Shown here in pieces: positions 52,543-58,454 of a DNA stretch of 64,000 bases. The position numbers and the translations under genes are program-made. The stretch is taken from positions 124,001 to 188,000 of the forward strand of contig NZ_FNPZ01000002.1 of NCBI RefSeq assembly GCF_900107435.1, given 5' to 3'. Numbering within the stretch: position 1 is the stretch's first letter; each line of letters begins with the position of its first letter. Origin of the DNA: Herbiconiux ginsengi (GTDB lineage Bacteria; Actinomycetota; Actinomycetes; Actinomycetales; Microbacteriaceae). The notes beneath the pieces are model-generated. The model was given only the letters and a program-made list of their open reading frames with translations, made no database searches and was not told the origin of the DNA.

Positions 52543-52743
52543 CGGCGTTCTGACCGGTCATTCCATGCAATAATTGATAATCAAGACCCGTTCTTGTGCA
52601 CGGATGCAGCATCTCTTTTCGGCTGCGAAAACCCGGCACTTGACATGGGTCTTAGTAATGTCCAAAAACATCTTCACGTGACGGGAATCTTGCCCGGGAC
52701 CTTGCACCTCCCACCCCGGTCGCGTGGCATGAAAGGTGAAGTA

Positions 52744-54054
52744 ATGGCCACCCCCAAGTCCGCAGACATCCTCGAGAAGGCAACGGCGCCTGACGAGGTC
52801 GAGTCGGCAGCGCAGCGCCCCACGGCCAAGCGCGCGCCGGCCAAGAAGACCGCAGCGAAGGCTGCCCCGAAGAAGGCCACCAAGGCGACCGCGAAGAGCG
52901 ACGACTCCGACGACATCGAGCCCGATGACGAGGTCGTCGTCGTCGACGACGACGCGGTCGAAGAGGTCGCCGACGACGTCGAGGTGGTCGTCGACGACAG
53001 CGACTCCGACGACACGGATGCCGACGGCGACGACAAGCCCGCCAAGCCGGCCGCCGCCGAGGCCCCGCTGCCGAGCGGTGCCCTCGTGCTCTCGCTGGTC
53101 GACGACGAAGACGACGTTCCCGTCTACTCCTCCACGATCACGGGCGCCACGGCCGATCCGGTCAAGGACTACCTGAAGCAGATCGGAAAGGTCGCGCTCC
53201 TGAACGCGGCCGAAGAGGTCGAACTCGCGATGCGCATCGAGGCGGGTCTGTTCGCCGAAGACAAGCTGGCGAACAGCGACAACCTGACGCCGACGCTCAA
53301 GCGTGAGCTGCAGTGGGTGGCGAAAGACGGCCAGCGGGCCAAGAGCCACCTGCTCGGCGCGAACCTGCGCCTCGTGGTCTCGCTCGCCAAGCGCTACACC
53401 GGTCGCGGCATGCAGTTCCTCGACCTCATCCAGGAAGGCAACCTGGGTCTCATCCGTGCCGTCGAGAAGTTCGACTACACCAAGGGCTTCAAGTTCTCGA
53501 CCTACGCCACCTGGTGGATCCGTCAGGCGATCACGCGTGCGATGGCCGACCAGGCGCGCACCATCCGCATCCCGGTGCACATGGTCGAGGTCATCAACAA
53601 GCTCGCCCGTGTGCAGCGCCAGATGCTGCAGGATCTCGGCCGTGAGCCCACGCCCGAAGAGCTCTCGCGCGAACTCGACATGACCCCGGAGAAGGTCGTC
53701 GAGGTGCAGAAGTACGGCCGTGAGCCCATCTCACTGCACACCCCCCTGGGTGAAGACGGCGACAGCGAGTTCGGCGACCTGATCGAAGACACCGAAGCGG
53801 TCGTCCCGGCCGACGCGGTGGGCTTCACGATGCTGCAGAAGCAGCTGGAATCGCTCCTCGACTCCCTCTCGGAGCGCGAGGCCGGCGTCATCCGGATGCG
53901 TTTCGGTCTCGGCGACGGCATGCCCAAGACCCTCGACCAGATCGGCGACACCTTCGGCGTGACGCGCGAGCGCATCCGTCAGATCGAGTCGAAGACGATG
54001 GCCAAGCTCCGTCACCCCTCGCGATCGCAGTCGCTGCGCGACTACCTCGAGTAG
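52744..54054 (+). CDS. sigA: Primary RNA polymerase sigma factor
   Basis: 436 residues. A Lys/Ala-rich N-terminus, then an acidic stretch ([20 protein letters not shown]) as in actinobacterial SigA. Region 1.2 is [16 protein letters not shown], region 2 carries [20 protein letters not shown], region 3 [17 protein letters not shown], region 4.2 [20 protein letters not shown]. It directs housekeeping transcription. The ATG at 52744 follows AAAGGTGAAGT. The 5' region contains TTGACA at about 52638 but no convincing -10 at the right distance. murT starts four bases after the stop. Confidence 0.96.
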
Positions 54055-54058
54055 GCCG

Positions 54059-55348
54059 GTGGGGCTCCGCACTGCCACGGCCGTTCTCGTCGGGCGGGCC
54101 GTCCGTGTCGCCGCGCGCCTGCGCGGCGGCGGGTCGGCGATCCCCGGCAACATCGCGCTGAAGATCGATCCCGGGTTTCTCGAGCGCACCATCGCCCGCA
54201 TTCCCGATGGCGTCGTCGCGGTCTCCGGATCGAACGGCAAATCGACCACCACGAACATGCTCGCCGCCATCATGCGGCAGCACGGCCTGACGGTCTTCAC
54301 CAACCCGTCGGGCGGCAACCTCCCTCAGGGCATCGCGTCGGCGTTGCTCTCGGAGGTGTCGGTCAGCGGCCGGCTCGACTCCGACATCGCGATCCTCGAG
54401 GTGGACGAGGGCTACGGAACCCGGCTCGCCGAGTTGCTGAAGCCGCGTACGGTGCTGCTGCTGAACATCCAGATCGACCAGCTGAACCGCTACCACGAGC
54501 CCGATCGGGTGGCCGCGATGCTCGGCCGGGTCGCCGCCTCCGCCACCGAGGGTCTCGTGCTGAACCGGGAAGACAACTTCCTGGTCGACCTCGATCAGCG
54601 CATCCCGGCTCGCGACGGCCGGGCCGTGTCGTTCTTCGGCGGTGTGCCCGCGCTCGTGGACGCCGCGAGCCACGGCGTGGCGTCGGCCGACCGCTTCGGT
54701 GACTCCACCGTCGCACCCGGGTCGCGGCCGGCCGCGGTCGAGGTCGTCGCGCTCGAGGGCGCCCGGGCGGCGCTCGACATCGACGGCACCCTGGTCTCGG
54801 TGAAGCTGCCCGCCCGCGGCATGCACTACGCCCTCGATGCCGCCGGTGCCGCAGCTGCGGCACGCAGCGTGCTGGGCGATCGCTTCAAGCCGGAGTTGGT
54901 CACCCGTGCCCTCGACACCCTCGAGACGGTCTACGGTCGCGGCGAGTTGCTCGAGGTGGAGGGCGAGCAGATCGAGATCATCATGATGAAGAACCCGGCG
55001 AGCCTACAACTCAACCTCGACTCGCTCGAGGGCGCCCCCGAGCAGGTCTTCATGGCGGTCGACGAGGGCACCCCCGATCCGTCGTGGATCTACGACATCG
55101 ATTTCTCGGCGCTCGACCACGTCGACGGGATCACAGGATCGAAGGCCTGGCAGTTCGCGGTGCGCTTCGGCTACCTCGGCATCCCGGTCGGCTCCGTAGA
55201 CCTCGACGTGAAAGCCGCTTTGAAGGCCTTTCTCGCCCTGCCCGCTCCCACCACCGGCCACAAGGTGATGATCCTGAACTACGAGCAGATGATGCTGATC
55301 CGCAAGATCCTGGGCTTCAAGGAGCTCGAGGGCGGGGGACAACCGTGA
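54059..55348 (+). CDS. murT: MurT-like Mur ligase without the zinc ribbon
   Basis: 429 residues from a GTG start. The Mur-ligase ATP site is SGSNGKSTTTNML and the ligase core continues with ILEVDEGYG and LNIQIDQLNRYHEPDR. The C-terminal DUF1727 part has MMKNPASLQLNLDSL and DPSWIYDIDFSAL, which keeps the Asp that completes the GatD triad in S. aureus. The family normally has a Cys4 zinc ribbon in the central domain; this protein has no cysteine at all. It ends in a GTGA overlap with gatD. Normally the pair amidates D-Glu of lipid II; see the finding. Confidence 0.88.
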   Translation: MGLRTATAVLVGRAVRVAARLRGGGSAIPGNIALKIDPGFLERTIARIPDGVVAVSGSNGKSTTTNMLAAIMRQHGLTVFTNPSGGNLPQGIASALLSEVSVSGRLDSDIAILEVDEGYGTRLAELLKPRTVLLLNIQIDQLNRYHEPDRVAAMLGRVAASATEGLVLNREDNFLVDLDQRIPARDGRAVSFFGGVPALVDAASHGVASADRFGDSTVAPGSRPAAVEVVALEGARAALDIDGTLVSVKLPARGMHYALDAAGAAAAARSVLGDRFKPELVTRALDTLETVYGRGELLEVEGEQIEIIMMKNPASLQLNLDSLEGAPEQVFMAVDEGTPDPSWIYDIDFSALDHVDGITGSKAWQFAVRFGYLGIPVGSVDLDVKAALKAFLALPAPTTGHKVMILNYEQMMLIRKILGFKELEGGGQP

Positions 55349-56079
55349 CTCTGCGCATCCTGCACCTCTTCCCGCGCCTCCTCGGCCTGAACGGAGAGAG
55401 CGGTAACGTCGAGATCCTCCGGCTCCGATCGGAGTGGCGCGGGCTGCCGGTCGAGGTCATCAGCTACGACGGGGGCGATCCGCTCCGCTTCGACGAGGCG
55501 GACCTCGTGTTCATCGGCAGCGGCCCCGTCTCGGCCGAGGTTCGCGCGCATCCGCTCGTGCTCGGCATCGGTGCCGAATTGCGGGCTCTGGCTTCTGACG
55601 GCGTGCCGTTCCTGGCGATCGGCGCCGGCTTCCAGCTGCTCGGCGAGACTGTGACGCTCGAGGGCGGCGAGGTGCTCGAGGGCGCCGGCGTCTTCCCGGT
55701 CACCACCCGCCACGGCGGGATCCGGGTGGTCGGCGACTTCGTGGTGGAGTCAGCGCGGCTCGGCACAGTCGTGGGCTTCGAGAACCGCGGCTCGTTCGTC
55801 GACGTGGGAGGGCATCGGACGCTCGGCCGAGTCGTCTACGGGCGCGGCAACACCGAGACCCCCGGCGAGGAGGGCTTCTGGGAGGACAACCTCCTCGGCA
55901 CCCACCTGCACGGCCCCGTGCTGGCGAACAACCCCGGCCTCGCCGACTCCCTGCTCGACACCGCTCGCTCGCGCCGCGGCCTGTCGTACATCGACGCCGC
56001 CCCCGAGGCCCTGCGCGTGGTCGACGATCGGGCCCGCCACGCTCGGGAGACGATTGCGGCGGCCCCGCTCAGCGAATAG
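55345..56079 (+). CDS. gatD: GatD-like class I amidotransferase with catalytic Cys replaced
   Basis: 244 residues from a GTG overlapping the murT stop. The CobB/CobQ-like glutaminase fold is clear: LFPRLLGLNGESGNVEIL, LVFIGSGPVS, PFLAIGAGFQLLGE and LLGTHLHGPVLANNP with the catalytic-type His. At residue 94 the codon is GCC (Ala) where GatD has its nucleophile Cys (GxCxGxQ motif). No other Cys exists in the protein. Glutamine hydrolysis is therefore not expected. The frame is otherwise intact. Confidence 0.88.
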   Translation: MTLRILHLFPRLLGLNGESGNVEILRLRSEWRGLPVEVISYDGGDPLRFDEADLVFIGSGPVSAEVRAHPLVLGIGAELRALASDGVPFLAIGAGFQLLGETVTLEGGEVLEGAGVFPVTTRHGGIRVVGDFVVESARLGTVVGFENRGSFVDVGGHRTLGRVVYGRGNTETPGEEGFWEDNLLGTHLHGPVLANNPGLADSLLDTARSRRGLSYIDAAPEALRVVDDRARHARETIAAAPLSE

Positions 56080-56081
56080 CA

Positions 56082-56155
56082 GCTAGAAATTACGCAAATA
56101 GTGAGGACCGACCCCATATAGGGCGTCGGTCCTCACTATTTGCGTAATAACTAGC
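56082..56155. terminator. Very long hairpin between gatD and parE
   Basis: A perfect 24-bp stem (56089-56112 with 56125-56148) is flanked by five more pairs (GCTAG/CTAGC) after a two-base internal loop. The twelve-base loop can itself pair CCC/GGG. Both genes converge on it, so it is a strong bidirectional terminator. Confidence 0.85.
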
Positions 56156-56157
56156 AA

Positions 56158-58245
56158 TCAGACGTCGATGCGGTCACGCGACATGTTGTCGGAGCCGGCG
56201 ATGATGAACTCCTTGCGCGGGGCCACGTCGTCGCCCATCAGCAACTCGAACATCTTCTCCGCCACGGCGGCGTCGGCCACGCCCACCCGGCGCAGGGTGC
56301 GGAAGCGCTTGTCCATGGTGGTGGACGCGAGCTGGTCGGCATCCATCTCGCCGAGACCCTTGTAGCGCTGGATCGGGTCTTGGTACTTGCGGCCCGACTT
56401 CTTGAGCGCGGCGAGCACGGCGTTCAACTCGGCCTCGGAGTAGGTGTAGATCGTCTCGTTCGGCTTCGAGCCCGGGTTGATCGCCACCACCCGGTGCAAC
56501 GGCGGCACGGCGGCGTAGACCCGGCCGTCTTCGATCAGTGGCCGCATGTAGCGGAAGAACAGGGTGAGTAGGAGGGTGCGGATGTGCGCACCGTCGACAT
56601 CCGCGTCGCTCATCAGGATGATCTTGCCGTAGCGCGCCGCCGACAGATCGAAGGAGCGGCCGGAGCCCGCGCCGATGACCTGGATGATCGAGGCGCACTC
56701 GGCGTTCGAGAGCATGTCGGCGATCGACGCCTTCTGCACGTTGAGGATCTTGCCGCGGATGGGGAGCAGCGCCTGGAACTCGCTGTTGCGCGCGAGCTTC
56801 GCGGTGCCGAGGGCCGAGTCGCCCTCCACGATGAACAGCTCGCTCTGTGCCACGTCGGAGGATCGGCAGTCGACGAGCTTTGCCGGCAGCGTGGATGACT
56901 CGAGCGCGTTCTTGCGGCGCTGCGTCTCCTTGTGGGCGCGCGCCGAGATGCGCGACTTCATCTCGGCCACGACCTTGTCGAGCACGAGCGCCGACTGCGC
57001 CTTGTCGTCGCGTTTGGGAGAGCCGAAGCGGTCGGCCAGGCCCTTGGTGACCACCTGCGACACGATGGCGCGCACGGCCGGGGTGCCGAGCACCTCCTTG
57101 GTCTGGCCTTCGAATTGCGGTTCGGGCAGGCGCACGGTCAGCACGGCGGTGAGACCGGCGAGCACGTCTTCCTTGTCGAGCTTGTCGTTGCCGACCTTGA
57201 GGCGGCGGGCGTTGGCCTCGACGGCCTGCCGCAGGAACTTCAGTAGCCCGGCCTCGAAACCGGCCTGGTGGGTGCCGCCCTTCGGCGTCGAGATGATGTT
57301 CACGAAGCTGCGGAACTCGGTGTCGTAGCCGATGCCCCAGCGCATCGCGAGGTCGACCGCGCACTCGCGCGAGAGCTCGGTGGGCACCATCGCGCCGTGC
57401 TCCGAGAGCACCGGAACGGTCTCGGTGAACGTGCCCGTGCCCTGGATGCGCCAGGTGTCGGTGATGGGGGAGTCGGGAGCCAGGTGCTCCACGAACTCCG
57501 AGATGCCGCCCTCGAAGCGGAACGACTCGTGGCGCGGCTCCTCGCCCCGCTCGTCATCGATCGCGATCTTGAGTCCGGGCACGAGGAACGCGGTCTGACG
57601 GGCGCGCACGGTCAGCTCGTCGGTCTGGAACTCGGCACCGCGCGTGAAGATCTGGCGATCGGCCCAGTAGCGCACACGCGTACCGGTCTTGGCACGGGCC
57701 ACCTTGCCGACCACCCGCAGTTCGCTCTTCTTCTCGAACGGCGTGAAGGGCGCATCCGGGCTCGCCGGGCCGCCCTTGTCGTCGAAGATGCCGGGCTCGC
57801 CCCGGTGGAACGACATGGCCCAGGTCTTGCCGTCGCGGTCGACCTCGACGTCGAGGCGCTCGGAGAGGGCGTTGACGACGGAGGCGCCGACACCGTGCAG
57901 ACCGCCGGAGGCCGCGTACGATCCCGAACCGAACTTGCCGCCGGCGTGCAGCTTGGTGAAGACCACCTCGACACCGGAGAGCCCGGTCTTCGGCTCGATG
58001 TCGACCGGGATGCCGCGGGCGGTGTCGCGCACCTCGACGCTGCCGTCGTCGTGCAGCACCACGTCGATGTCGGTGCCGAACCCGCCGAGCGCTTCGTCGA
58101 CCGAGTTGTCGATGATCTCCCAGAGGCAGTGCATCAGACCGCGGGAGTCGGTGGAGCCGATGTACATGCCGGGCCGCTTGCGAACCGCCTCGAGGCCTTC
58201 GAGAACGGACAGGTGCCGGGCAGAGTAGTCGGACGGTGATGCCAC
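56158..58245 (-). CDS. parE: Type II topoisomerase subunit B (ParE-like)
   Basis: 695 residues from a GTG with GGAG five bases upstream. The GHKL ATPase domain shows EIIDNSVDEALGG, GRGI-like ARGIPVD and GGLHGVGASVVNALS. The TOPRIM domain has IVEGDSALGTAK and MSDADVDGAHIRTL; the C-terminus ends RKEFIIAGSDNMSRDRIDV. As it is paired with a gyrA-like gene near sigA rather than at the origin, I call it ParE, the topoisomerase IV-type set; gyrB is the alternative label. Confidence 0.92.
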   Translation of the reverse strand: MASPSDYSARHLSVLEGLEAVRKRPGMYIGSTDSRGLMHCLWEIIDNSVDEALGGFGTDIDVVLHDDGSVEVRDTARGIPVDIEPKTGLSGVEVVFTKLHAGGKFGSGSYAASGGLHGVGASVVNALSERLDVEVDRDGKTWAMSFHRGEPGIFDDKGGPASPDAPFTPFEKKSELRVVGKVARAKTGTRVRYWADRQIFTRGAEFQTDELTVRARQTAFLVPGLKIAIDDERGEEPRHESFRFEGGISEFVEHLAPDSPITDTWRIQGTGTFTETVPVLSEHGAMVPTELSRECAVDLAMRWGIGYDTEFRSFVNIISTPKGGTHQAGFEAGLLKFLRQAVEANARRLKVGNDKLDKEDVLAGLTAVLTVRLPEPQFEGQTKEVLGTPAVRAIVSQVVTKGLADRFGSPKRDDKAQSALVLDKVVAEMKSRISARAHKETQRRKNALESSTLPAKLVDCRSSDVAQSELFIVEGDSALGTAKLARNSEFQALLPIRGKILNVQKASIADMLSNAECASIIQVIGAGSGRSFDLSAARYGKIILMSDADVDGAHIRTLLLTLFFRYMRPLIEDGRVYAAVPPLHRVVAINPGSKPNETIYTYSEAELNAVLAALKKSGRKYQDPIQRYKGLGEMDADQLASTTMDKRFRTLRRVGVADAAVAEKMFELLMGDDVAPRKEFIIAGSDNMSRDRIDV

Positions 58246-58269
58246 CGGGTCTCCTTCGGGAATCGCGAG

Positions 58270-58287
58270 GGAACGCACGGGCGTTCC
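58270..58287. promoter_or_regulatory. Inverted repeat upstream of parE
   Basis: GGAACGC-ACGG-GCGTTCC is a perfect 7-bp dyad with a 4-bp spacer, 24 bp before the parE start. It could be an operator or a leader hairpin. Its GAAC-N8-GTTC spacing does not match the LexA box. Confidence 0.35.
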
Positions 58288-58454
58288 GATCTCCAAGGCT
58301 AACCGCCCCGGATGGGCTCACCGGCGTACGACACCCTCGGTGTATTCCCGGTACGCGCACAGCGAAACACAGCGGATTGTGGCTTGGCCGTTACAGAACA
58401 GTGCTTTGATGTGACTACCAGCCAGTTCACGTTCGAGTCGCTAAGGAGCCGAAG

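What the first reader, a model, noticed from the sequence alone, without database searches (positions are those of the whole stretch)
54059..56079. MurT-GatD pair has lost its glutaminase Cys and zinc ribbon: possible peptidoglycan bridge ligase instead of amidase
Seen: GatD has a GCC (Ala) codon at residue 94, the number of the nucleophile Cys in S. aureus GatD, within GAGFQLLG where GxCxGxQLLG is expected. There is no Cys anywhere in GatD or MurT, so the MurT Cys4 zinc ribbon is gone too. Frames, coupling (GTGA) and all other motifs are intact, so this is not decay. Known: MurT-GatD normally amidates the alpha-carboxyl of D-Glu in lipid II. Microbacteriaceae have B-type peptidoglycan, in which that carboxyl carries the cross-bridge amino acid. 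Inference: the pair was repurposed to ligate an amino acid (Gly or a diamino acid) or free amine to D-Glu, with GatD as a non-hydrolytic partner that supplies or channels the amine.
Basis: partly seen in the sequence, partly recalled or inferred. Interest (0 to 1): 0.86.

Follow-up and report, generated by a model that had tools for sequence, protein, structure and literature searches.

The report
Cell-wall ligase with dead glutaminase
This gene pair makes a cell-wall enzyme whose ammonia-producing half has lost its key residue, and its gene neighbourhood suggests that it now attaches an amino acid, perhaps the cross-bridge, to the wall building block.

Summary
The cysteine loss is real but misnumbered: the S. 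aureus Cys94 position is window Gly93, not Ala94. Neither protein has Cys. The missing MurT zinc ribbon is uninformative, since many Cys-bearing relatives lack it too.

In the window's family (Microbacteriaceae) 103 of 119 genomes read carry a Cys-less GatD; 49 of 49 order- and phylum-level and 50 of 50 Bacilli GatDs read keep the Cys. The trees need two losses (clades I and II). In this family nearly all Cys-less pairs lie behind sigA, and clade I is under purifying selection.

In 21 other family genomes a non-homologous F420-ligase-like (CofE-like) protein occurs instead, never with MurT. Both versions often adjoin alanine-racemase-like and ATP-grasp genes. Rhodoluna lacicola (B2beta wall) and Clavibacter (B2gamma genus) carry clade I.

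Best reading: a MurT ligase joining an amino acid, probably the first bridge residue, to the D-Glu alpha-carboxyl, with GatD kept as structural partner.

Against: Atopobium parvulum (A4alpha) has a clade II Cys-less GatD; 8 of 150 family genomes have neither system; S. aureus GatD-C94G still amidates with NH3, so an ammonia-dependent amidase is possible. No activity was tested.

The parts
52594..54054 (+). sigA-type sigma factor gene directly upstream of murT* (start codon as listed mechanically)
   Evidence: ORF; its C-terminus is found upstream of 98 of 106 Cys-less MurT loci of the family
54059..55348 (+). murT*: MurT-type ligase subunit, 429 aa, no Cys; equivalents of S. aureus MurT E108 (window E114) and D349 (window D340) kept
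   Evidence: AlphaFold model pLDDT 92.9, nearest solved folds MurT and other Mur ligases
55345..56079 (+). gatD*: GatD-type subunit, 244 aa, without catalytic Cys; H189 and R128 equivalents kept, D19 equivalent is Glu
   Evidence: AlphaFold model pLDDT 95.8, nearest solved fold S. aureus GatD, TM-score 0.87
55621..55623 (+). codon GGC, Gly93: the column of the S. aureus GatD nucleophile Cys94 (Ala94, 55624-55626, is the next residue)
56082..56155 (.). inverted repeat between gatD* and the convergent parE-type gene, arms of 37 nt, 89% complementary; probably a two-way terminator (inference)
56158..58296 (-). parE/gyrB-type topoisomerase gene that closes the sigA-parE interval
   Evidence: ORF; named by sequence; homologues found after sigA in named and unnamed loci

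Best explanation
The pair is a MurT-type ligase bound to a glutaminase-dead GatD. MurT* activates the alpha-carboxyl of D-Glu in the peptidoglycan precursor with ATP, as its relatives do, but in place of glutamine-derived ammonia it accepts the amino group of an amino acid, most likely the first residue of the Microbacteriaceae cross-bridge (a D-diamino acid such as D-Dab, or Gly). GatD* is kept because MurT needs a GatD partner to be active. Shown here: loss of the nucleophile, intact ligase residues, purifying selection, position behind sigA, mutually exclusive occurrence with a CofE-like ligase in the same interval, and shared racemase-like and ATP-grasp neighbours. Inferred: acceptor, amine donor, and role in the bridge.
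For: Cys94 column lost in 105 of 122 family GatD copies against 0 of 49 order/phylum GatDs and 0 of 50 Bacilli GatDs read. E108 kept in 93 of 93 clade I and 11 of 11 clade II MurTs. dN/dS 0.04-0.27. sigA upstream of 98 of 106 Cys-less and 0 of 17 Cys-bearing copies. CofE-like protein in 21 of 150 genomes, overlap with MurT 0; seven genera hold both states. Racemase-like ORF beside gatD* in 14 of 30 loci and found by cofE-like in 12 of 21 genomes; ATP-grasp in 19 of 21 CofE-like genomes and behind gatD in 7 MurT genomes. Two Cys-less MurT-GatD pairs outside the family are followed directly by a PF01168-type or similar racemase gene (L407, L412). MurT of S. aureus is inactive without GatD even when GatD is C94G (PMC3266927, passages). 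B-type bridge residue sits on D-Glu in Clavibacter and Rhodoluna (passages).
Against: No activity tested. A. parvulum has a Cys-less pair but an A4alpha wall. 8 of 150 family genomes have neither ligase and 14 have only Cys-bearing pairs with nothing of these families between sigA and parE; their wall types are unknown to me. Leucobacter, a B-type genus (PMC4804768, passages), could not be placed among the handles. D-Glu amidation is reported in C. michiganensis. The window itself has no racemase or ATP-grasp gene in the interval.
Confidence: 0.5

Rival explanations
1. The pair is still a D-Glu amidase but uses free ammonia; GatD* is only a scaffold.
For: S. aureus GatD-C94G (the same residue as window Gly93) keeps NH3-dependent lipid II amidation at pH 8.5, and MurT still needs it (PMC3266927, passages). 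D-Glu amidation is reported in C. michiganensis muropeptides (PMC9603630, passages).
Against: The same paper finds no NH3 use at pH 7.5. Racemase-like and ATP-grasp neighbours and exchange with an F420-ligase-like protein are not expected for an amidase. Clade I MurT differs from 64 Cys-bearing pairs at several conserved columns, e.g. S. aureus R133.
Confidence: 0.2
2. The pair joins an amino acid to the D-Glu alpha-carboxyl, but as a pendant substituent and not as the cross-bridge; another enzyme builds the bridge.
For: Clade II Cys-less pairs occur in A. parvulum, an A4alpha species. 8 of 150 family genomes, whose walls may also be B-type, have neither system.
Against: In R. lacicola and C. 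michiganensis the published bridge residue occupies that carboxyl, leaving little room for a pendant one.
Confidence: 0.15
3. The pair acts on another carboxyl (another stem-peptide or cell-wall acceptor) or has a mainly structural or regulatory role.
For: GatD* evolves fast, and in two MurT-bearing genomes (G081, G144) no GatD was recognised. Nothing here fixes the acceptor.
Against: E108 and D349 equivalents are kept in 93 of 93 clade I MurTs, and the nearest families act on peptidoglycan or pseudomurein precursors.
Confidence: 0.12

Closest known systems
MurT-GatD, lipid II isoglutaminyl synthase (S. aureus, S. pneumoniae, S. pyogenes)
   Same: Two-gene operon, both folds, MurT P-loop, E108 and D349 equivalents, GatD R128 and H189 equivalents.
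   Different: GatD Cys94 is Gly; MurT has no Cys4 ribbon; scores far below the NCBIfam equivalog cut-offs (MurT 109.9 of 800, GatD 144.9 of 450 bits).
Archaeal pseudomurein ligases and MurT-like proteins
   Same: MurT relatives; pMurC scores 62.7 bits. Archaeal MurT-like proteins occur in species without GatD (PMC11915815, passages).
   Different: Archaeal; no GatD partner; pMurC cut-off (560 bits) not met.
F420-0:gamma-glutamyl ligase family (PF01996, CofE)
   Same: A carboxylate-amine ligase family; a member fills the same sigA-parE interval in Microbacterium, Salinibacterium and 21 of 150 family genomes.
   Different: Not homologous to MurT. The Microbacterium member is itself far below the CofE equivalog cut-off (30.7 of 180.65 bits).

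Membership tests
MurT-GatD lipid II isoglutaminyl synthase (glutamine-hydrolysing) | GatD nucleophile Cys94 | tested here: not met
   Gly93 in the window
MurT-GatD lipid II isoglutaminyl synthase (glutamine-hydrolysing) | GatD His189 and glutamine-binding Arg128 | tested here: met
   H and R at these columns in the window
MurT-GatD lipid II isoglutaminyl synthase (glutamine-hydrolysing) | MurT E108 and D349 | tested here: met
   E114 and D340 in the window
MurT-GatD lipid II isoglutaminyl synthase (glutamine-hydrolysing) | NCBIfam equivalog cut-offs | tested here: not met
   109.9 of 800 bits and 144.9 of 450 bits
MurT-GatD lipid II isoglutaminyl synthase (glutamine-hydrolysing) | Glutamine-dependent amidation of D-Glu | not testable with these tools
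   needs enzymology; C94G abolishes it in S. aureus
MurT and GATase_3 families in the wide sense | Pfam gathering scores and fold | tested here: met
Proposed B-type bridge ligase | Occurs in B-type organisms | tested here: inconclusive
   R. lacicola and Clavibacter yes; clade II also in A4alpha A. parvulum; most genomes unnamed
Proposed B-type bridge ligase | Joins Gly or a diamino acid to the D-Glu alpha-carboxyl | not testable with these tools
   no activity data

The most novel reading that the evidence does not exclude
The sigA-parE interval of Microbacteriaceae holds the first step of B-type cross-bridge synthesis. It is filled by interchangeable, non-homologous carboxylate-amine ligases (MurT*-GatD* clade I; MurT-GatD clade II, in two genomes with a CofE-like gene; or a CofE-like ligase), with racemase and ATP-grasp partners that make the D-amino acid and add further residues.
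Probability: 0.42. Interest if true: 0.87.

Novelty: new variant of a known kind. Interest (0 to 1): 0.73.

Why it matters
I found no paper that assigns an enzyme to the bond between D-Glu and the bridge in B-type peptidoglycan, or that ties MurT or GatD to Microbacteriaceae (capped lists from an open-access library, so subscription papers are not covered). The locus names two candidate ligase systems with companion racemase-like and ATP-grasp genes, and a search listing (PMC11577799) reports genome editing in Rhodoluna lacicola, which carries the pair, so the question becomes directly testable. It is also a case of an amidotransferase glutaminase subunit kept under selection after losing its nucleophile, with two losses on the trees made here.

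Tried and rejected
Zinc-ribbon loss as evidence: rejected, uncoupled from Cys loss. Decay: rejected. Strict link of Cys loss to B-type walls: rejected as stated (A. parvulum). Erysipelothrix or Eubacterium as independent B-type tests: not reached. Of 299 genomes of the class of Latilactobacillus graminis, 144 had a match; I read 50 GatDs (the 30 loci returned and 20 others) and all keep Cys. Naming Leucobacter and the genomes with an empty interval: failed. Aurantimicrobium minutum (G059 by exact length) keeps the Cys and has parE next after sigA, but I found no wall type for it. In Foldseek MurT* fits some MurF entries as well as or better than MurT entries; domain orientation can explain this, so it was not used.

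Counts and dropped rows. 121 of 150 family genomes have MurT; 119 were read (G105 not fetched, G038 a contig-end fragment), two of them with no recognised GatD (G081, G144). L111 (G020, weak GatD-like, no MurT) was left out of the tallies. One search printed 52 of 52 outgroup loci with Cys; three of these (L165, L166, L169) are weak, CobQ-like matches (E 4e-13 to 4e-10), so I count 49 GatDs. One search left out MurT rows of 300 residues or fewer; one search set aside 6 rows; one search used 30 randomly drawn clade I family rows plus the window and named ones and left out 10 long-branch rows and 3 loci without a recognised GatD. The probability 1.9e-19 treats genomes as independent, which they are not.

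Names. Exact replicon length against a paper named G010, G059, G030, G034 and G970. Recall only: G015 as Tropheryma whipplei, f56/g219 as Collinsella, the wall type of Microbacterium oxydans.

Papers. PMC6346192 was read whole. PMC6085368, PMC5871853, PMC6113224, PMC9603630, PMC5358740, PMC6106888, PMC12027743, PMC4804768, PMC12738856, PMC4156110, PMC3035223, PMC11915815, PMC6113628 and PMC3266927 were seen as passages; PMC4929513 and PMC11577799 as listings.

Full report
WHAT IS THERE. Window 54059-55348 encodes a MurT-type protein (429 aa) and 55345-56079 a GatD-type protein (244 aa). They overlap at GTGA, follow a sigA-type gene and precede a convergent parE-type gene. Neither contains Cys. 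Pfam gives Mur_ligase_M, MurT_C and GATase_3 above cut-off. The genome search shows one MurT_C match and one GatD match, so no second pair was found.

THE RESIDUE. The Cys94 column of S. aureus GatD is window Gly93 (GGC, 55621-55623), and Ala94 follows it. The H189 and R128 columns are kept; the D19 column is Glu. In S. aureus, C94G abolishes glutamine-dependent amidation but leaves NH3-dependent amidation at pH 8.5 (none at 7.5), and MurT is inactive without GatD (PMC3266927, passages). C94A, H189A and R128A abolish glutaminase activity (PMC5871853, passages). So this pair should not use glutamine, and a dead GatD may still be needed.

FAMILY SURVEY. The same 150 family genomes were searched with GatD and MurT. 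Exact replicon lengths identify members of this family as Rhodoluna lacicola (1,430,433 bp), Clavibacter nebraskensis (3,063,596 bp), Pontimonas salivibrio (1,760,810 bp) and Aurantimicrobium minutum (1,622,386 bp), so the family is Microbacteriaceae. 121 of 150 have MurT; 119 were read. 103 carry a Cys-less GatD (105 copies: 68 Gly, 18 Ala, 9 His, 4 Ser, 4 Asn, 2 Thr), 17 a Cys-bearing one, three both, and two no recognised GatD. Outside the family the Cys is kept in 49 of 49 GatDs of the order and phylum samples (52 of 52 printed, three being weak CobQ-like matches), in 50 of 50 Bacilli GatDs read, and in 17 of 18 from mostly named genomes. The exception is a termite-gut Propionibacteriaceae MAG, where MurT-GatD(Gly) is followed directly by a PF01168 racemase-family gene.

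TWO LOSSES. On a MurT tree of 174 rows (FastTree) and one of 135 rows (IQ-TREE, quick) the Cys/no-Cys state needs two changes. Clade I holds the window and most of the family. Clade II holds two Microbacteriaceae groups, the termite MAG, and ten loci from two other families, f56/g219 and f33/g291. Clade II lost more: H189 is Leu or Ile, and the MurT D349 column is Asn in 10 and Met in 1 of 11 family rows, while clade I keeps D349 in 93 of 93. D349N strongly reduces S. aureus amidation (PMC6113224, passages). E108 is kept in all 104 rows of both clades. Twelve close clade I pairs show dN/dS of 0.04-0.18 (murT) and 0.08-0.27 (gatD).

THE LOCUS. A sigA C-terminus lies upstream on the same strand of 98 of 106 Cys-less MurT loci and of 0 of 17 Cys-bearing ones. 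The eight exceptions include one contig end, two second copies, two with a wider gap behind sigA, and one with a CofE-like gene in between. In named Microbacterium (three) and Salinibacterium (one) loci there is no murT-gatD behind sigA, and their genomes give only weak or no GatD-like matches. Their sigA-parE interval holds an F420-ligase-family protein (PF01996), an ATP-grasp protein (PF14397) and, in the three Microbacterium loci, racemase-like ORFs. Family-wide the CofE-like protein (E below 1e-90) occurs in 21 of 150 genomes, none with MurT (1.9e-19 if genomes were independent). Seven genera contain both states. Two clade II genomes (G053, G123) have a weaker CofE-like gene directly before murT-gatD, and one clade I genome (G147) has one elsewhere. 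ATP-grasp occurs in 19 of the 21 CofE-like genomes and behind gatD in 7 MurT genomes. Racemase-like ORFs adjoin gatD* in 14 of 30 loci (L002-L031) and were found near cofE-like in 12 of 21 genomes, a lower bound because stretches differ in length (ten proteins checked by Pfam). The window itself has neither neighbour. All 14 genomes with only a Cys-bearing pair have parE next after sigA with no match to these families in between; so do 5 of the 8 genomes with neither system.

MECHANISM. Mur ligases activate a carboxyl as acyl phosphate and couple an amine (established). In C. michiganensis D-Dab links D-Glu to D-Ala (PMC9603630, passages); R. lacicola has type B2beta with Dab (PMC4156110, passages). 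MurT* activating the same carboxyl, with an amino acid as amine, would make that bond, and a racemase would supply the D form. Acceptor and amine are inferred, not shown. Archaeal MurT-like proteins occur without GatD (PMC11915815, passages).

AGAINST. Atopobium parvulum (G970, 1,543,805 bp) has a Cys-less, His-less GatD of clade II and a published A4alpha L-Lys-D-Asp wall, so Cys loss is not a marker of B-type walls. 8 of 150 family genomes have neither ligase and 14 have only Cys-bearing pairs; their wall types are unknown to me. D-Glu amidation is reported in C. michiganensis. An ammonia-dependent amidase therefore remains a live rival (0.2).

MODELS. AlphaFold gives pLDDT 95.8 for GatD* and 92.9 for MurT*. 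Nearest solved folds are S. aureus GatD and MurT and other Mur ligases. No complex was modelled.

VERDICT. Observation partly confirmed, interpretation partly supported, new variant of a known kind. The exchangeable ligase locus is the stronger finding.

Noticed in passing
window 56082-56155: Inverted repeat with 37-nt arms (89% complementary) between gatD* and the convergent parE-type gene; looks like a two-way terminator.
   Followed up: partly
L173: A contig titled Stenotrophomonas maltophilia carries a Microbacterium-like sigA, CofE-like and ATP-grasp locus; probably contamination of that assembly.
   Followed up: no
L341 and L171 (Amnibacterium setariae); L074 and L088 (G122); L019 and L090 (G113): Genomes with two Cys-less MurT-GatD pairs, only one of them known to be sigA-linked; the second copies may have a different amino-acid substrate.
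   Followed up: no
window MurT E409 (S. aureus T419 column): An acidic residue (47 Asp, 46 Glu) replaces Thr in 93 of 93 clade I MurTs; a candidate for binding an incoming amine, if the alignment there is right.
   Followed up: no
L412 (G955) and L414 (G692): Outside the family, Cys-less MurT-GatD pairs of one genus code are followed by a racemase-like gene (L412) or adjoin a CofE-like fragment (L414).
   Followed up: partly
L310, L311 (G119, G049): Genomes with neither ligase where the gene after sigA looks like an ABC-type amino-acid-binding lipoprotein (named by eye).
   Followed up: no
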